From NCBI GenBank assembly GCA_902386205.1, contig CABMIH010000080.1, positions 1 through 55,849 on the forward strand: a DNA stretch of 55,849 nt. Direction: 5' to 3'. This DNA comes from an uncultured archaeon (GTDB lineage: Archaea; Halobacteriota; Methanosarcinia; Methanosarcinales; Methanoperedenaceae). Within the stretch, counting starts at the first letter, position 1; every line of letters starts with the position of its first letter. The position numbers and the translations under genes were made by a program. The notes beneath the pieces were generated by a model, which was not told where the DNA came from, made no database searches, and worked only from the letters and a program-made list of their open reading frames with translations. Positions 28,926 to 35,249 of this stretch are shown piece after piece.

Positions 28926-29906
28926 ATGATATCAAAAACTAAAAAACGAAATTTTCATGGCCCCGATTTGAGAGTCTCGTATCTATATGCTTGTATTTTA
29001 TTTATTTCATTTATTGCCCCTGCCGGAGCGGTGCATTTGGATTCATTGAATAATAACTCCTGTATTGAATGTCATAAGGCCCTGTCTCCTTTCACAGATG
29101 AACAGACGCGGCTTAACGAAATAAGACTGAACCATATAAAAAACAATGTATCATGCCAGCTCGAATGCCATGCTGATATCATAAGGAAAACGGCAACTGA
29201 TAATTTCCAGCAGTGGTCTGATTCGGGTCATTCAAAATATTACGTCACGTGCGATGCATGCCATGGCGGGGATCCGGGTGCAAAAACTGAAGCAGCAGCT
29301 CATGCGCCAATGAAAAACATCACTGATCCCAATAGTTCCATTTATTTTAAGAATATACCGGATACATGCGGAAACTGCCATTCCGAAGAACTCAGTCATT
29401 TCAAGAACACCATGCATTACCAGAGATTGAGAGCTACATCCAGCGGGCCATCCTGTATAACATGCCATCAACCGCACACCTTCAAGGTGCTCAAGGCTTC
29501 TGAACTTACTGCCGTTTGTAGTGTTTGCCATAATGCAAAAGACCAGATAGCAGCAGCAAGCGTCCCGAAAGATGCAAAATTGGCCCTTGAAAAGGCTAAT
29601 GAATTTCAGGAAGAGGTAATGAAAGCCAAAGATGCCATTGCCGAAGCAAAGGCCAATGGAAAAGATGTGTCATCAGCACAGGCGGATCTGGAAAAAGCAG
29701 TAGCAGTTCAGAATGATATCCCATCATTATGGCATGGGTTTAATCTAAAGGATTTTGATGAACAGATCCAGAACGGGATTGATTCGGCCAAAAAAGCTGA
29801 AAAGAGGGTAACTGGAGTTGAGACCACTGTGCCTTCTACGCCAGGTGTTGGAATAGTTTTGATCATAGGAATATTTACAATATTATACTTATTAAGAAAA
29901 CAATGA
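28926..29906 (+). CDS. Multiheme c-type cytochrome (six heme motifs), surface-anchored
   Basis: 326 residues from ATG 28926; in-frame ATGs at 28836 and 28872 exist, but the first lies in the promoter. A signal sequence (VSYLYACILFISFIAPAGAV) is followed by heme motifs CIECH, a CxxxCH variant CQLECH, CDACH, CGNCH, CITCH and CSVCH, so six c hemes. Residues about 210-290 are a heme-free, Ala/Lys/Glu-rich coiled region. The C-terminus is a hydrophobic segment after TPGVGIV and ends LLRKQ, resembling a PGF-CTERM sorting signal. It should face the outside of the cell membrane. The next gene, 12 bases on, encodes a 13-heme cytochrome, so both probably work in one extracytoplasmic electron chain. Confidence 0.85.
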   Translation: MISKTKKRNFHGPDLRVSYLYACILFISFIAPAGAVHLDSLNNNSCIECHKALSPFTDEQTRLNEIRLNHIKNNVSCQLECHADIIRKTATDNFQQWSDSGHSKYYVTCDACHGGDPGAKTEAAAHAPMKNITDPNSSIYFKNIPDTCGNCHSEELSHFKNTMHYQRLRATSSGPSCITCHQPHTFKVLKASELTAVCSVCHNAKDQIAAASVPKDAKLALEKANEFQEEVMKAKDAIAEAKANGKDVSSAQADLEKAVAVQNDIPSLWHGFNLKDFDEQIQNGIDSAKKAEKRVTGVETTVPSTPGVGIVLIIGIFTILYLLRKQ

Positions 29907-29918
29907 AAGGGAATTTAA

Positions 29919-31016
29919 ATGGATAAGATATCACTTACAGCGGCTATTAAGAACTGGATTTCAAGGCATAAACTGCCTATTGTGATCGTGCTGGTCGTCC
30001 TGGTTTCGGCGGCGGTAGTTGTTACCGAAAAAGCGCTTGAGATATCAGAAAATCCCGCTTTTTGCGGAAAGAATTGTCATATTATGAGACCATATTATGA
30101 TTCCTGGGCTACATCCTCTCATAATGATGTCCGTTGTGTTGAATGCCATTATGAACCCGGCCTGCTTGGTCATGTAAAAGGTAAAATCAATGGGCTTGCC
30201 CAATTCTACAGCTACGAGACGACAGTCGAAGAATATTCCGGGAAATTATATGCAAAAGTCATGGATAAAAACTGTCTCGTTTGCCACGAAAAGCGTATTT
30301 ATTCATCCGATATTAGCTATATCGGTGTCAATTTCAGCCATAAAGACCACCTGCTGCAACCGAAGAGAGGAATCGGACTAACATGCACAAGTTGCCATTC
30401 CATGCTTGTGATAGGCATGAAAGAGCATCAGTCTGTTACTGACCCGTCATGCAGCCAGTGCCATCCAAATATCGTCCAGAAAGATATTGGGCATATGGTG
30501 GTGACCACTTCAACATGTTTCACCTGTCATTTCAGGGACGTGCCAGGGAATACATCGATATCAGGCTGCCCTTCATGTCACGGTCCGCCAAAACAAACAC
30601 ATAATAATTACACGAACTTTAATCATTCAAGCCACATCAGCCGCGGTTACGATTGCCAGACATGCCATGTGAATTTTTCAGTAGGTGCGAATGATATTGT
30701 TCCAAAGAACAAATGTTATTCCTGCCATAACATCAGGGAAAGGGTTGAAAAATATGATGACTTCAGTTTCGTGCACAAGAACCACGTAACAAATAACAAG
30801 ATTGCGTGCTATAACTGTCATTCAGATGTCAAACATAATCCGGGAATAAAAGATAACCTGTGCGCTACATGCCATTCCAGTGAGCATCCGAGCGACTGGT
30901 TGAAAACACATAAGACACAGGTTTTAATAGGGAAAGTATGCAGCGATTGCCACCAGCCAAAGTTCTGCTCAGACTGCCATGCCACAGGTGTAGCAAGCGG
31001 CAAGAAAGTAAAATAA
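29919..31016 (+). CDS. NapC/NirT-like membrane-anchored cytochrome c with about 13 hemes
   Basis: 365 residues. A single N-terminal anchor helix (LPIVIVLVVLVSAAVVV) is followed by the NapC/NirT-type start FCGKNCHIMRPYYDSW with a CxxxCH motif. Twelve CxxCH motifs then follow: CVECH, CLVCH, CTSCH, CSQCH, CFTCH, CPSCH, CQTCH, CYSCH, CYNCH, CATCH, CSDCH and CSDCH. Such proteins oxidise membrane quinols and pass electrons to external acceptors. Quinol or methanophenazine as donor is an inference. The upstream cytochrome is co-transcribed. No cytochrome maturation gene is in view. Confidence 0.87.
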   Translation: MDKISLTAAIKNWISRHKLPIVIVLVVLVSAAVVVTEKALEISENPAFCGKNCHIMRPYYDSWATSSHNDVRCVECHYEPGLLGHVKGKINGLAQFYSYETTVEEYSGKLYAKVMDKNCLVCHEKRIYSSDISYIGVNFSHKDHLLQPKRGIGLTCTSCHSMLVIGMKEHQSVTDPSCSQCHPNIVQKDIGHMVVTTSTCFTCHFRDVPGNTSISGCPSCHGPPKQTHNNYTNFNHSSHISRGYDCQTCHVNFSVGANDIVPKNKCYSCHNIRERVEKYDDFSFVHKNHVTNNKIACYNCHSDVKHNPGIKDNLCATCHSSEHPSDWLKTHKTQVLIGKVCSDCHQPKFCSDCHATGVASGKKVK

Positions 31017-31976: not shown

Positions 31977-34900
31977 TTAAACAGGGCATACGGGTGCAGG
32001 ACAGCCACCTGCATATTCGTCGTCTGCGGAGACATATTTTTCTGTTATGTTCCCGAGGTATAAAACCTGCTGTGCCTTGCTGCCGTACCTGTAAACCGTA
32101 ATTCCCTTACATTTCAATTCATAGGCGAGCATAAACGCCCTTTCAACGTCTTTGATATCCACATCATTCGGGAAATTGATTGTTTTTGAGACGGCATTAT
32201 CGCAATGCTTCTGGAAAACGGCCTGCATTTTAACATGCCATTCCGGCCTGACATCAAAAGCTGTCACAAACACGCGCCTGATATCCTCTGGCACTTCTTC
32301 GATGCCTGCAAGCCTTCCTGTCCTGGCGATTTTCATTATGAGTTCTTCGCTGTAAAAACCCCGCTCTTTTGCCACTGTCTCAAAAAACGGGTTCACCTCA
32401 AAAAGCTTTGTTCCCTCCATAACGTTCCTTACAAAAGAGACCGCAAACAAAGGTTCGATACCGCTTGAACAACCTGCGATAATGCTGATCGTCCCCGTGG
32501 GCGCAACCGTGGTGACAGTTGAGTTGCGTATGGGTGTTTTATATATACTTCCGTGGAAATTCGGGAATGCTCCCCTCTCCCCGGCCAATCTTTCAGATGC
32601 CGCATGGGATTTTTCCTGGATAAAACCCATTATCTTCTCCCCTGTTGCCAGCGCGTCCGGAGAATCATACGGGATGCCAAGCTGCACAAGCATATCGGCA
32701 AAACCCATTACCCCGAGGCCTATTTTCCTATTCGCCCGTGTGATTTCTTCTGTCTGTGACAGCGGATACTTATTAATATCTATTACATTATCAAGGAATT
32801 TAACTGCGATATTTACCGTTTTTTCAAGTTTCTCCCAGTCGATCGAACCGCCCTTAACCATCTTTGCAAGATTTATCGAACCCAGGTTGCAGGATTCATA
32901 GGGCAATAAAGGCTGCTCTCCGCAATCGAATGACACAATTCCATTAGAAATAAAGCTCAATCTTTTTGGTTCTGTTAAGTCGTATACAAGCTCCTCTCCA
33001 TCTACTTTCACATATTTTATACGCTCTTCAAAAGTATCAGAATAAAATCCTTTTGTAAAAAATTTGTTTATTTTATTTTTATGTAGCTCGCATAGGAATC
33101 CTATTTCTTTTAAAAACCTGATTACACTTTCCCTGCTAATTTCAAGTTCATAGCACATACCACTCGAACTGTATTTTTTCAATTCACCTTTCTTGTTAAG
33201 ATAACTAAACGTATTTTCCCGTGGTGTTCTGCTTCTATTATATATTCTCGACTTGATACCCAAATTCAACAAAAGTATTTGAACATCTTTCAAAAGTCTT
33301 TGAGATTTCGAAGTCAGTCTTGTATATGACGAATGATTCTCTATAAAATTAACAGTTCCATCTGCCGTGAATAATCCCTGCAAAAATCCAATTACCACCT
33401 CTTTCGGTGCGGTGAAAATACTTTCGGGAACAGTTTTGTTCTCAGCATCCACGGACTTTACACCGAGCTTGTTAAAAAAATCTACAAAATATTTTGAGTG
33501 ATAAGATAAGTGATACACCTCATTCCCTCTTTGCACTTCATTTATATCATAGCCATACCACAGGTTAATTATTGGTTTGAGATAATTCATCACCTCTCTG
33601 TCTTCTTTTGAGAACGTGAACCCGACCCTGCAATTCTTATCACCATCTCTCAGCCAACCATCGCCGATCAGCCATCCTATAACACGGCCCAATTCTTTGC
33701 TCCATTTATCAGGTAGATTTAGCCTGGTGATTTTTCCGTTACCTCCGACGAATTCATTCCTGACCCCGAAAGGTAATTCATAATTTTCACCAAATTTCCC
33801 CTCACCTGATTGAATCTGAACTCTATGCTTTGATTTGTCCAGGGCTGATACCTTCACCCACCCTTCATTTGTCAGAACTTTGTGGTCTGCAGTACATAAT
33901 AGTTCATATCCCGACTCGGTTTCTATTTTGTAAGTTTTCCTGACCCCAACACAAAAGGCTTTTGATATTTCATTGAACTTAACCCCGCTCTGCTTTGATT
34001 GCATTAAGCTTATTGTCCCATTGTAATTTACGATATTGATTGGCGTCTTATTATCAACAGCTATTTTGATTCCACCTTCCGGATACTTTTCGACAAGATC
34101 TTTCATCCTCATTAATCCATTTTCCGTTGAAATAAGCGTGCTTCCGATAACGCATGGGTTGGTGCTCTCCATTTCCCCGATATGCGGCGTCGGGTTATGC
34201 CTGTTGATCTCATCGATAAACACAACACCCGGGTCGCCTGTCCTCCACGCCATCGTTATTATGAGGTTCCATATTTCCCGTGCACGTACCTTCTTTACAA
34301 CTTCCCTGTTCCGCGGATTTATTAATTCGTACTCACGGTCCTCTTTTACAGCACGCATGAATTTATCATCCACTGCCACAGAGATATTAAAATTTGCCAG
34401 AAATCCTTCTTTTGTTTTCGCGGTTATGAAATCAATTATATCCGGGTGGTCAGCCCTCAATATTCCCATATTGGCGCCGCGCCGTTTGCCCCCCTGTTTT
34501 ATCACGTCGGTGGTAGTGTCAAATATCCTCATGAAGGAAACAGGGCCTGATGCAACCCCGTGCGTGGTTCTCACAATATCCTTTGCAGGCCGAAGACGGG
34601 TGAAAGAAAAACCCGTACCACCACCCGATTGCTGGATCAGGGCCATGCTCTTCACGGCATCAAAAATGCTGATAAGTGAATCTTCGACCGGGATCACAAA
34701 ACATGCAGAAAGCTGGCCCAGGTCTGTGCCTGCATTCATAAGAGTCGGAGTGTTGGGAAGAAATTCAAGGTTTACCAGCACGTCCAGGAAATCCCCTTCG
34801 GATTCCGGATCAAGAGCGACAGCCTTTGCGATACGCCTGAAAAGCTGCAAAGGAGTTTCTGTCACGTTCCCTTTCTCATCTTTCAGGAGGTAGCGCCTCT

Positions 34901-35249
34901 CAAGGACACGCACCGCATTAACACTTAACTTCAATTCGTCCCTGACCCCAAGAAATTCCTTGGCTTTCCTTATCTGTGCCCGTTTCTCCCTGTACAGGAT
35001 ATATGCCTTTGCGACGCCTGCGTAACCATTTTTTATCAGGACTTCCTCAACAATATCCTGGATATCCTCAACACCCGGAATTCCAGTGATCCTTTTATCG
35101 ATAATTTCCACTACCTGGTTCGCTATATCCTCTCCCCTCTTCCCGTCTTTGTTCTTTGTGGCTATAAAGGCTTTAAATACGGCATTTGCTATCTTTGACC
35201 TGTCAAAATCGACTATTCTTCCATCCCTTTTGCGGATTTTTTGCGGCAT
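31977..35249 (-). CDS. Adenosylcobalamin-dependent (class II) ribonucleotide reductase with intein
   Basis: 1090 residues including a 410-residue intein (366-775), so the mature protein has 680. It reduces ribonucleotides to deoxyribonucleotides. An ATP-cone domain occupies about residues 1-95. The barrel has FLPNTPTLMNAG, SACFVIPVEDSL, QQSGGGTGFSFTRLRP and, after the intein, CGEQPLLPYESCNLGSINL. The C-terminal CPAPVC supplies the redox cysteines. No small radical subunit gene is adjacent, consistent with class II. The cobalamin dependence fits the cobamide chemistry of this group of archaea. The intein sits before the conserved Cys of the NPCGEQ motif. Confidence 0.93.
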   Translation of the reverse strand: MPQKIRKRDGRIVDFDRSKIANAVFKAFIATKNKDGKRGEDIANQVVEIIDKRITGIPGVEDIQDIVEEVLIKNGYAGVAKAYILYREKRAQIRKAKEFLGVRDELKLSVNAVRVLERRYLLKDEKGNVTETPLQLFRRIAKAVALDPESEGDFLDVLVNLEFLPNTPTLMNAGTDLGQLSACFVIPVEDSLISIFDAVKSMALIQQSGGGTGFSFTRLRPAKDIVRTTHGVASGPVSFMRIFDTTTDVIKQGGKRRGANMGILRADHPDIIDFITAKTKEGFLANFNISVAVDDKFMRAVKEDREYELINPRNREVVKKVRAREIWNLIITMAWRTGDPGVVFIDEINRHNPTPHIGEMESTNPCVIGSTLISTENGLMRMKDLVEKYPEGGIKIAVDNKTPINIVNYNGTISLMQSKQSGVKFNEISKAFCVGVRKTYKIETESGYELLCTADHKVLTNEGWVKVSALDKSKHRVQIQSGEGKFGENYELPFGVRNEFVGGNGKITRLNLPDKWSKELGRVIGWLIGDGWLRDGDKNCRVGFTFSKEDREVMNYLKPIINLWYGYDINEVQRGNEVYHLSYHSKYFVDFFNKLGVKSVDAENKTVPESIFTAPKEVVIGFLQGLFTADGTVNFIENHSSYTRLTSKSQRLLKDVQILLLNLGIKSRIYNRSRTPRENTFSYLNKKGELKKYSSSGMCYELEISRESVIRFLKEIGFLCELHKNKINKFFTKGFYSDTFEERIKYVKVDGEELVYDLTEPKRLSFISNGIVSFDCGEQPLLPYESCNLGSINLAKMVKGGSIDWEKLEKTVNIAVKFLDNVIDINKYPLSQTEEITRANRKIGLGVMGFADMLVQLGIPYDSPDALATGEKIMGFIQEKSHAASERLAGERGAFPNFHGSIYKTPIRNSTVTTVAPTGTISIIAGCSSGIEPLFAVSFVRNVMEGTKLFEVNPFFETVAKERGFYSEELIMKIARTGRLAGIEEVPEDIRRVFVTAFDVRPEWHVKMQAVFQKHCDNAVSKTINFPNDVDIKDVERAFMLAYELKCKGITVYRYGSKAQQVLYLGNITEKYVSADDEYAGGCPAPVCPV
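32925..34154 (-). mobile_element. Intein with LAGLIDADG homing endonuclease in ribonucleotide reductase
   Basis: 410 codons between extein ESTNP and CGEQP. Block A begins with Cys (CVIGSTLISTENG), block B has the TADH motif (LLCTADHKVLTNEGW), and the two LAGLIDADG helices are LGRVIGWLIGDGW and VIGFLQGLFTADG. Block G reads SNGIVSFD followed by extein Cys. The terminal residue is Asp rather than Asn and the penultimate one Phe rather than His. Asp-ending inteins are known to splice. The DNA is more AT-rich than the extein, consistent with transfer. Confidence 0.92.

What the first reader, a model, noticed from the sequence alone, without database searches (positions are those of the whole stretch)
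28926..31016. Six-heme and 13-heme cytochromes as a candidate external electron path
The second protein starts like NapC/NirT quinol oxidases but carries 13 heme motifs instead of 4-5, as if a NapC domain were extended into a wire. The first is exported, carries six hemes and a C-terminal anchor resembling PGF-CTERM. Together they could take electrons from the membrane pool to the cell surface, as proposed for ANME archaea.
Basis: partly seen in the sequence, partly recalled or inferred. Interest (0 to 1): 0.5.

Follow-up and report, generated by a model that had tools for sequence, protein, structure and literature searches.

The report
Archaeal 13-heme and 6-heme cytochrome pair
Two neighbouring genes of a methane-eating archaeon encode membrane-anchored proteins packed with iron-containing hemes that most likely carry electrons out of the cell membrane; the genes were already listed in print among this group's cytochromes, but their kinship to bacterial quinol-oxidising proteins was not spelled out in the texts seen.

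Summary
Window 28926-29906 encodes an exported cytochrome with 5 CXXCH + 1 CX3CH motifs and a C-terminal membrane helix (MHC6). Window 29919-31016 encodes a single-TM protein that starts like NapC/NirT/NrfH and carries 12 CXXCH + 1 CX3CH (MHC13). The organism is a Ca. Methanoperedens (ANME-2d). The pair is adjacent in 31 of 31 genomes searched that hold MHC13; in 21 of them it lies beside a triheme-FeS-NrfD operon, which the window genome has on another contig.

The orthologs are in print (ANME2D_00603/00604) as highly expressed, uncharacterised cytochromes. Added here: the NapC/NrfH kinship; conserved His/Met enough for a second ligand on every heme; Archaeoglobi-like 10-heme homologs also tied to NrfD; 13-heme paralogs beside S-layer cytochromes in 4 of 5 places, the fifth cut by a contig end.

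Best reading: MHC13 oxidises menaquinol and passes electrons to MHC6. Arrival at the cell surface is not shown; a pseudoperiplasmic reductase is equally open. The MHC13 fold could not be predicted. Known kind, new variant, moderate interest.

The parts
28926..29906 (+). MHC6: exported six-heme cytochrome (5 CXXCH + 1 CX3CH), 326 aa, C-terminal helices and C-terminal membrane helix; ortholog of ANME2D_00603 / MPEBLZ_04299
   Evidence: identity L052 vs L048 62%, as in Arshad Table 2
28968..29048 (+). N-terminal hydrophobic stretch of MHC6 (signal peptide or TM helix)
   Evidence: hydropathy; AF2 helix 15-29
29154..29171 (+). CX3CH motif (CQLECH, aa 77-82) of MHC6
29826..29903 (+). C-terminal membrane helix and basic tail of MHC6 (aa 301-326), PGF-CTERM-like but not matching the HMMs
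29919..31016 (+). MHC13: NapC/NirT/NrfH-type cytochrome with 13 heme motifs, 365 aa, one N-terminal TM helix; ortholog of ANME2D_00604 / MPEBLZ_04300
29955..30047 (+). TM helix of MHC13 (about aa 13-43)
   Evidence: hydropathy
29979..30407 (+). NapC/NirT (PF03264) region of MHC13
30063..30086 (+). First heme motif C-GKN-CH-I-M (CX3CH, aa 49-56) beside the TM helix; M56 aligns with NrfH Met49
   Evidence: M56 in 36 of 36
30183..30203 (+). Putative quinol-site segment K89...Q95: K89 aligns with NrfH Lys82 (36 of 36 rows Lys), Q95 with Asp89 (36 of 36 Gln)
   Evidence: MAFFT gaps the Lys82 column instead
30333..30980 (+). Extension of c7/c3-like heme units (F-x-H-x2-H...CXXCH at aa 139, 234, 284)

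Best explanation
The pair is one of several electron exits from the menaquinone pool of Ca. Methanoperedens. MHC13 is a NapC/NrfH-type quinol dehydrogenase: one TM helix, a CX3CH heme with a Met beside the membrane, and an invariant Lys that aligns with NrfH Lys82. Its head is lengthened by c7/c3-like modules to 13 hemes. It would oxidise menaquinol (inferred), pass electrons along its hemes (inferred from conserved ligands) and hand them to MHC6, the six-heme partner anchored by its own C-terminal helix (inferred from adjacency). MHC6 belongs to a paralog family whose other copies sit with other quinol-oxidising modules (Rieske/cytochrome b; FeS-NrfD), so MHC13 looks like the quinol module of its own copy, usually encoded beside the NrfD route. 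The final destination (surface/S-layer or pseudoperiplasmic reductase) is not determined. Confidence: outward electron transfer from the quinone pool about 0.75; direct quinol oxidation by MHC13 about 0.5.
For: NapC/NrfH homology (hhalign vs four Methanoperedens NrfH 97.3%, E 2.7e-11). Ligands: in 32 of 32 13-heme rows 12 non-motif His plus M56 are invariant for 13 hemes; in MHC6 six non-motif His are kept in at least 45 of 46 rows for six hemes. K89 is Lys in 36 of 36 rows. MHC13 in 29 of 31 genomes of the genus and 2 of 3 others of the family, 73-95% identity for the main copies. MHC6 directly before MHC13 in 31 of 31. NrfD ortholog present in 30 of those 31 and missing in both genus members without MHC13. 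MHC6 paralogs beside Rieske/cytochrome b (L160) and NrfD. In print: menaquinone pathway in the family (PMC7327174 passages) and RPKM 993/907 for this pair in a nitrate-fed enrichment (PMC4683180 Table 2). Zhang 2023: four MHCs of a 'Group 1' menaquinone:cytochrome c cluster, tags 02260, 02261, 02264, 02265, highest with soluble iron; the two-gene gap fits this operon, but the mapping is inferred.
Against: NrfH Asp89 is replaced by an invariant Gln, and the six Archaeoglobi-like homologs aligned have no Lys at the K89 column (read from the alignment), so the quinol site may be altered or lost. Linkage to NrfD in two lineages fits equally a relay fed by NrfD. No usable MHC13 model (pLDDT 43). 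Contact between MHC13 and MHC6 is inferred from gene order alone. Co-occurrence with NrfD may only reflect a shared core genome; the two genomes lacking both are 87% and 77% complete. High expression with nitrate argues against a metal- or electrode-only role.
Confidence: 0.5

Rival explanations
1. MHC13 is not itself the quinol oxidase but a membrane-anchored relay: NrfD oxidises menaquinol, the FeS protein (NrfC-like) and triheme subunit take the electrons, and MHC13 and MHC6 carry them away.
For: The NrfD ortholog lies within 6 kb of MHC13 in 21 of 31 genomes and is present in 30 of 31. Of nine Archaeoglobi-like genomes with the 10-11-heme NapC-type homolog, it lies immediately behind NrfD in 7, behind a NrfD-FeS-triheme set in 1, and is cut by a contig end in 1. 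Asp89 to Gln, and no Lys in the six homologs aligned.
Against: In 10 of 31 genomes the pair is not within 6 kb of NrfD; four of these (G000, G002, G008, G021) have no NrfD in the long flanks read, the others may be contig breaks. The NrfD operon already has its own six-heme and triheme partners. 13-heme paralogs have no NrfD in the fetched stretches.
Confidence: 0.3
2. The electrons go to a reductase in the pseudoperiplasm (for example the nitrate reductase), not to the cell surface.
For: Highly expressed in a nitrate-fed enrichment, and such a role was proposed for this cytochrome set by Arshad 2015. Neither protein matched an S-layer domain. MHC6 is membrane-anchored, so it would stay near the membrane.
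Against: Group 1 cluster highest with soluble iron if the tag mapping is right. 13-heme paralogs near MHC/S-layer proteins. The window genome has many S-layer-domain matches (27 matches) that could include later stations; their heme content was not examined.
Confidence: 0.4
3. The pair is a terminal enzyme related to NrfHA (nitrite or hydroxylamine-type), MHC6 being the catalytic part.
For: Weak Cytochrom_C552 matches of MHC6 (42 of 46 members at E<=1, best 1.6e-6). The C-terminal helices of the MHC6 model superpose on NrfA/octaheme nitrite reductases (8rv0 Z 10.4, rmsd 2.8, 97 residues).
Against: No CXXCK in either protein. Six conserved non-motif His for six hemes. Foldseek E at least 0.5, and Z of this size is common for helical bundles (note). 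hhalign of MHC6 with NrfA (78%) is no better than with NrfH (87%), so it is not specific. True NrfHA genes exist separately in some Methanoperedens (NrfH over cut-off in 4 of 60 relatives).
Confidence: 0.04
4. The pair runs inward, reducing quinone with electrons taken from outside partners.
For: CymA-type proteins are implicated in both directions (PMC6295460 passages).
Against: Methane oxidation needs an electron outlet; expression with nitrate and (inferred) iron acceptors.
Confidence: 0.05

Closest known systems
ANME2D_00603/00604 and MPEBLZ_04299/04300 (Arshad 2015, PMC4683180 Table 2)
   Same: Orthologs: same order, same motif counts; BLZ2 vs ANME-2d identities of the four operon cytochromes (six-heme paralog, triheme, MHC6, MHC13) are 71, 70, 62, 73% here, equal to the table.
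   Different: Listed there as uncharacterised cytochromes; no NapC/NrfH relation in the section read. In the window genome the pair sits apart from the NrfD operon, next to the MC1 gene and a ribosomal protein cluster.
ImcH family of Geobacter and other bacteria
   Different: 13 motifs; one TM instead of three in nearly all ImcH; archaeal (that survey reports ImcH only in Bacteria). No ImcH sequence was compared here.
NrfH (NapC/NirT family) of NrfHA
   Same: Heme-1 Met, W/H and CXXCH pattern around hemes 2-3, Lys82 position by HMMER.
   Different: CX3CH in place of CXXCH at heme 1, Asp89 is Gln, 9 more hemes, partner lacks CXXCK.
   Same: NapC-type start plus c7-like hemes, 29-35% identity to MHC13, next to NrfD; in one case (G241) also with two six-heme homologs.
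   Different: 10-11 hemes, no CX3CH at heme 1, no Lys at the K89 column; a 12-heme neighbour in two clusters read is NapC-type above cut-off in one and just below in the other. GAH_01256 itself was not compared.
[quoted passage not shown]
   Same: NrfD, FeS protein and MHCs in one cluster, with the pair alongside in 21 of 31 genomes.
   Different: The text read does not name a NapC-type member; supplements could not be read.

Membership tests
NapC/NirT cytochrome c family (PF03264) | Profile score above the curated cut-off | tested here: met
   31.9 bits vs 24.1; 34.7 bits in the genome search
NapC/NirT cytochrome c family (PF03264) | Single N-terminal TM helix followed by heme 1 with a nearby Met | tested here: met
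   TM about aa 13-43 by hydropathy; C49-x3-CH-x-M56 invariant in 36 of 36 rows
NrfH (TIGR03153) | Score above the equivalog cut-off of 134.2 | tested here: not met
   64.1 bits
NrfH (TIGR03153) | Quinol-site Lys82 and Asp89 | tested here: inconclusive
   K89 matches Lys82 by HMMER and by spacing from heme 2, MAFFT gaps it; Asp89 position is Gln
NrfHA nitrite reductase | Partner with CXXCK active-site heme | tested here: not met
   none in MHC6 or MHC13
ImcH | NapC-like part with CX3CH next to the TM domain and 5-9 further CX2CH | tested here: inconclusive
   CX3CH next to the TM is met, 12 CX2CH is outside the reported range; no ImcH sequence compared
ImcH | Sequence homology to Geobacter ImcH beyond the NapC part | not tested
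   no ImcH sequence was at hand
PGF-CTERM surface proteins | Match to PF18204 or TIGR04126 | tested here: not met
   window MHC6 does not match at E<=1; 13 and 7 of 46 alignment members do
MHC/S-layer fusion cytochromes | S-layer domain PF07752 in the protein | tested here: not met
   no PF07752 match for MHC6 or MHC13 at E<=0.1
Menaquinone:cytochrome c oxidoreductase cluster (NrfD type) | NrfD, FeS protein and MHC genes together | tested here: inconclusive
   NrfD within 6 kb in 21 of 31 genomes; in the window genome the module is on contig C7, the pair on C80

The most novel reading that the evidence does not exclude
Methanoperedens and other archaea share a modular outlet in which a NapC-type quinol dehydrogenase has itself grown into a multi-heme conductor, in steps of repeat units (about 6-7, 10-12, 13 and 16 hemes seen). 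The same 13-heme anchor is combined either with a six-heme, NrfD-linked complex or, as a paralog, with S-layer cytochromes, so that quinol oxidation and transfer across the pseudoperiplasm are done by one polypeptide without a separate soluble carrier.
Probability: 0.3. Interest if true: 0.65.

Novelty: new variant of a known kind. Interest (0 to 1): 0.42.

Why it matters
How electrons from methane leave the membrane of ANME archaea is unsettled. In the passage seen, Chadwick 2022 cites CymA as an example of how simple such systems can be, and NapC and NrfH have no hit in its main text. A conserved NapC-type, 13-heme protein, present in 29 of 31 genomes of the genus searched, is a specific, expressible candidate for that step in ANME-2d, and the S-layer-linked paralogs point to the next one.

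Tried and rejected
AlphaFold for MHC13 (36-row alignment) gave pLDDT 43 and was not used for any fold search. MHC6 gave 61.6 with only the C-terminal helices reliable.

The idea that MHC6 is an NrfA descendant was pursued and set aside. The hhalign link is no stronger than to NrfH, Foldseek E is at least 0.5, and the superposed part is a helix bundle, where such Z values may be generic.

IMG/VR scan for MHC13 relatives: 28 stretches matched a pattern, none encoded a relative. PDB sequence search with the MHC6 profile: no match at E<=0.01.

Rows dropped: L070 (partial match) was left out of A1. L036 (MHC6 cut at the contig start) and the eight loci without an MHC6 ortholog (L056, L059, L060, L066-L070) were left out of A2. 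Of the 30 loci made, the 26 outside Methanoperedenaceae (L079-L104) were read for gene content; hits without a locus were not. The NapC-domain alignment used 6 Archaeoglobi-like and 5 shorter proteins out of these, trimmed to 190 residues.

No control was made for how often an arbitrary Methanoperedens cytochrome lies near an S-layer cytochrome, so the 4-of-5 association has no chance estimate. Two of the five places are in one genome (G021).

Full report
Observation. MHC6 has 5 CXXCH and one CX3CH, MHC13 has 12 CXXCH and one CX3CH. Shuffled proteins of the same composition give on average 0.02 and 0.13 CXXCH. The gap between the genes is 12 bases in the window; in ten places compared it runs from 12 bases to a 4-base overlap.

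Organism. The window is a whole contig (C80) of a 2.79-Mb genome. The closest named relative of MHC13 is Ca. Methanoperedens sp. MnB_21 at 95%, and all 36 named loci come from records titled Methanoperedens, Methanoperedenaceae, Methanosarcinales archaeon or uncultured archaeon. The gene before the pair, on the other strand, encodes chromosomal protein MC1; the gene after it encodes a HemK2/MTQ2-like methyltransferase. MnB_21 has the same surroundings (L035).

Conservation. MHC13 occurs in 31 of 60 genomes searched: 29 of 31 in the genus, 2 of 3 elsewhere in the family, none of 26 in the rest of the order at E<=1e-10. MHC6 stands directly before it on the same strand in 31 of 31 (in G010 only its C-terminal part is on the contig, and in G002 the match starts at residue 80).

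Operon. In the M. nitroreducens ANME-2d record (L048) the order is six-heme paralog, triheme protein, FeS protein, NrfD, MHC6, MHC13, methyltransferase-like gene. An NrfD ortholog lies within 6 kb of MHC13 in 21 of 31 genomes. It exists somewhere in 30 of 31 (only G025, 81% complete, lacks it), and the two genus members without MHC13 (G011, G029; 87% and 77% complete) lack it too. In two genomes (G002, G018) the NrfD frame contains one stop codon. In the window genome the six-heme paralog, triheme, FeS and NrfD genes are intact on contig C7, without MHC6/MHC13 beside them (L105). G002, G008 and G021 also keep the pair without NrfD in the 17-19 kb read. The other six unlinked cases may be contig breaks.

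In print. Arshad 2015 Table 2 (PMC4683180, section 18 read) lists MPEBLZ_03194/03195/04299/04300 = ANME2D_00599/00600/00603/00604 with 5, 3, 5, 12 CxxCH and identities 71, 70, 62, 73%. The same four comparisons here give 71, 70, 62, 73%. RPKM were 1073, 767, 993, 907. The authors call them uncharacterised and give Ferp_1270 and GACE_1341 as homologs of the 12-CxxCH protein. Leu 2020 (PMC7327174, section 9 read) describes five menaquinone:cytochrome c oxidoreductase clusters, two with NrfD and FeS. Zhang 2023 (PMC10542353, section 9 read) finds the four MHCs 02260, 02261, 02264, 02265 of its Group 1 highest with soluble iron; the 2+2 pattern with a two-gene gap fits this operon, but I could not check the tags. 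NapC and NrfH have zero hits in the main texts of PMC10542353, PMC7327174 and PMC9012536, and NapC none in PMC10874420 and PMC7082337 (passages seen). In PMC4683180 NapC and NirT appear once each and NrfH four times; in the passages shown NrfH refers to the true NrfAH, and NapC/NirT to a cited title. Searches joining Methanoperedens with such terms were 1 paper; 5; 7; 25 of 156 papers listed; none; 10 of 20 listed. Among the papers listed I saw no description of a NapC-type 13-heme protein, but the lists were partial and supplements could not be read, so absence from print is not shown.

What MHC13 is. NapC/NirT profile above cut-off; NrfH best NCBIfam hit; profile-profile match to four Methanoperedens NrfH at 97.3% against 11% for NrfA. 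After the NapC part come c7/c3-like units with the pattern F-x-H-x2-H...CXXCH, three in 27 of 32 13-heme rows, two in the other five, and one in 4 of 4 seven-heme relatives. The seven-heme forms match the N-terminal 145-146 and C-terminal 65-72 residues, as if units were lost or gained between repeats.

Heme ligands. In 32 of 32 13-heme rows, 13 motif His, 12 other His and M56 are invariant, while the three remaining His vary (14, 29, 18 of 32). In MHC6, six non-motif His are kept in at least 45 of 46 rows, the other three vary (3, 12, 25 of 46), and no Met after the first residue is conserved in more than 29 of 46. So each heme can have a second ligand. This favours electron transfer over catalysis, but the pairing of ligands to hemes is not proven.

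Quinol site. M56 aligns with NrfH Met49 and K89 with Lys82, at the same distance from the heme-2 His. Asp89 aligns with Gln95. M56, K89 and Q95 are each the same in 36 of 36 rows. MAFFT places a gap at Lys82 instead. In that alignment the six Archaeoglobi-like homologs have Thr, Ser or Ala at the K89 column. That Lys82 and Asp89 are the conserved NrfH residues is taken from the Arshad passage.

Wider family. In 392 genomes of the phylum, 35 match at E<=1e-12. Nine (eight of f9, one of f34) have 10-11-heme homologs of 320-349 aa, one of them only as a 159-aa piece at a contig end. NrfD precedes the gene directly in 7 of the 9; in G270 a NrfD-FeS-triheme set precedes it; one is cut off. In G241 the order is triheme, FeS, NrfD, 10-heme, 12-heme, and two six-heme homologs of 39-40% identity to the Methanoperedens six-heme paralog (L141). 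The 12-heme protein there is also NapC-type. Most other matches read are 186-234 aa with 5-6 motifs, one of which was confirmed as NapC-type. One genome (G082, f21) has two tandem 370-aa NapC-type proteins with 16 CXXCH each (L095), so 13 hemes is not the upper end of this series.

MHC6 family. 26 of 32 genomes with any match have four matches: this one, the one before triheme-FeS-NrfD, and a tandem pair. In L160 the tandem pair is followed by Rieske and split cytochrome b genes, as Arshad described for MPEBLZ_00816-00818. The window genome has only two copies and no Rieske match.

S-layer link. Five 13-heme paralog places without MHC6 were read with flanks. In four (L137, L138, L139, L140) a divergent cytochrome with an S-layer domain (PF07752 E 1.7e-21, 1.3e-17, 2.1e-21, 9.4e-9) lies 1.5-4.2 kb away; in the fifth (L136) the contig ends 1.5 kb after the gene. 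This concerns paralogs at 71-74% identity, not the window gene itself, and no chance control was made.

Judgement. The pair is best read as a NapC-type quinol dehydrogenase with a lengthened heme head plus a six-heme acceptor, one of several outlets of the menaquinone pool. Shown: motifs, homology, ligand conservation, gene order. Inferred: quinol oxidation by MHC13, transfer to MHC6, direction. Unknown: the destination and heme geometry.

Noticed in passing
window 31977-35249 (-): Ribonucleotide reductase-like ORF of 1090 aa, against a 680-aa counterpart in MnB_21 (L035:10057-12099); the extra ~410 aa look like an intein (judged by eye; no family search made).
   Followed up: no
G000 (whole genome): No Rieske match and no tandem six-heme copies, unlike most relatives; the bc1-like outlet may be missing here or in an assembly gap (95.3% complete).
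   Followed up: partly
L066-L069: Seven-heme short forms of MHC13 (219-258 aa); three of the four (L067-L069) lie behind cytochromes with cbb3/class-I-like domains (326-1055 aa), so the NapC anchor seems to be combined with different partners.
   Followed up: partly
L095:297-2607: Two tandem 370-aa NapC/NirT-type proteins with 16 CXXCH each in another family (f21), longer in heme count than MHC13.
   Followed up: partly
L142:3238-11146: Two triheme-FeS-NrfD sets close together in G270, one nearer to the Methanoperedens NrfD (54% identity), the other attached to the 10-heme and 12-heme genes.
   Followed up: partly
L054:7111-7989 / G002:C60:27980-28717: MHC6 lacks its CX3CH motif and N-terminal part in this one genome; frameshift or true loss not examined.
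   Followed up: no
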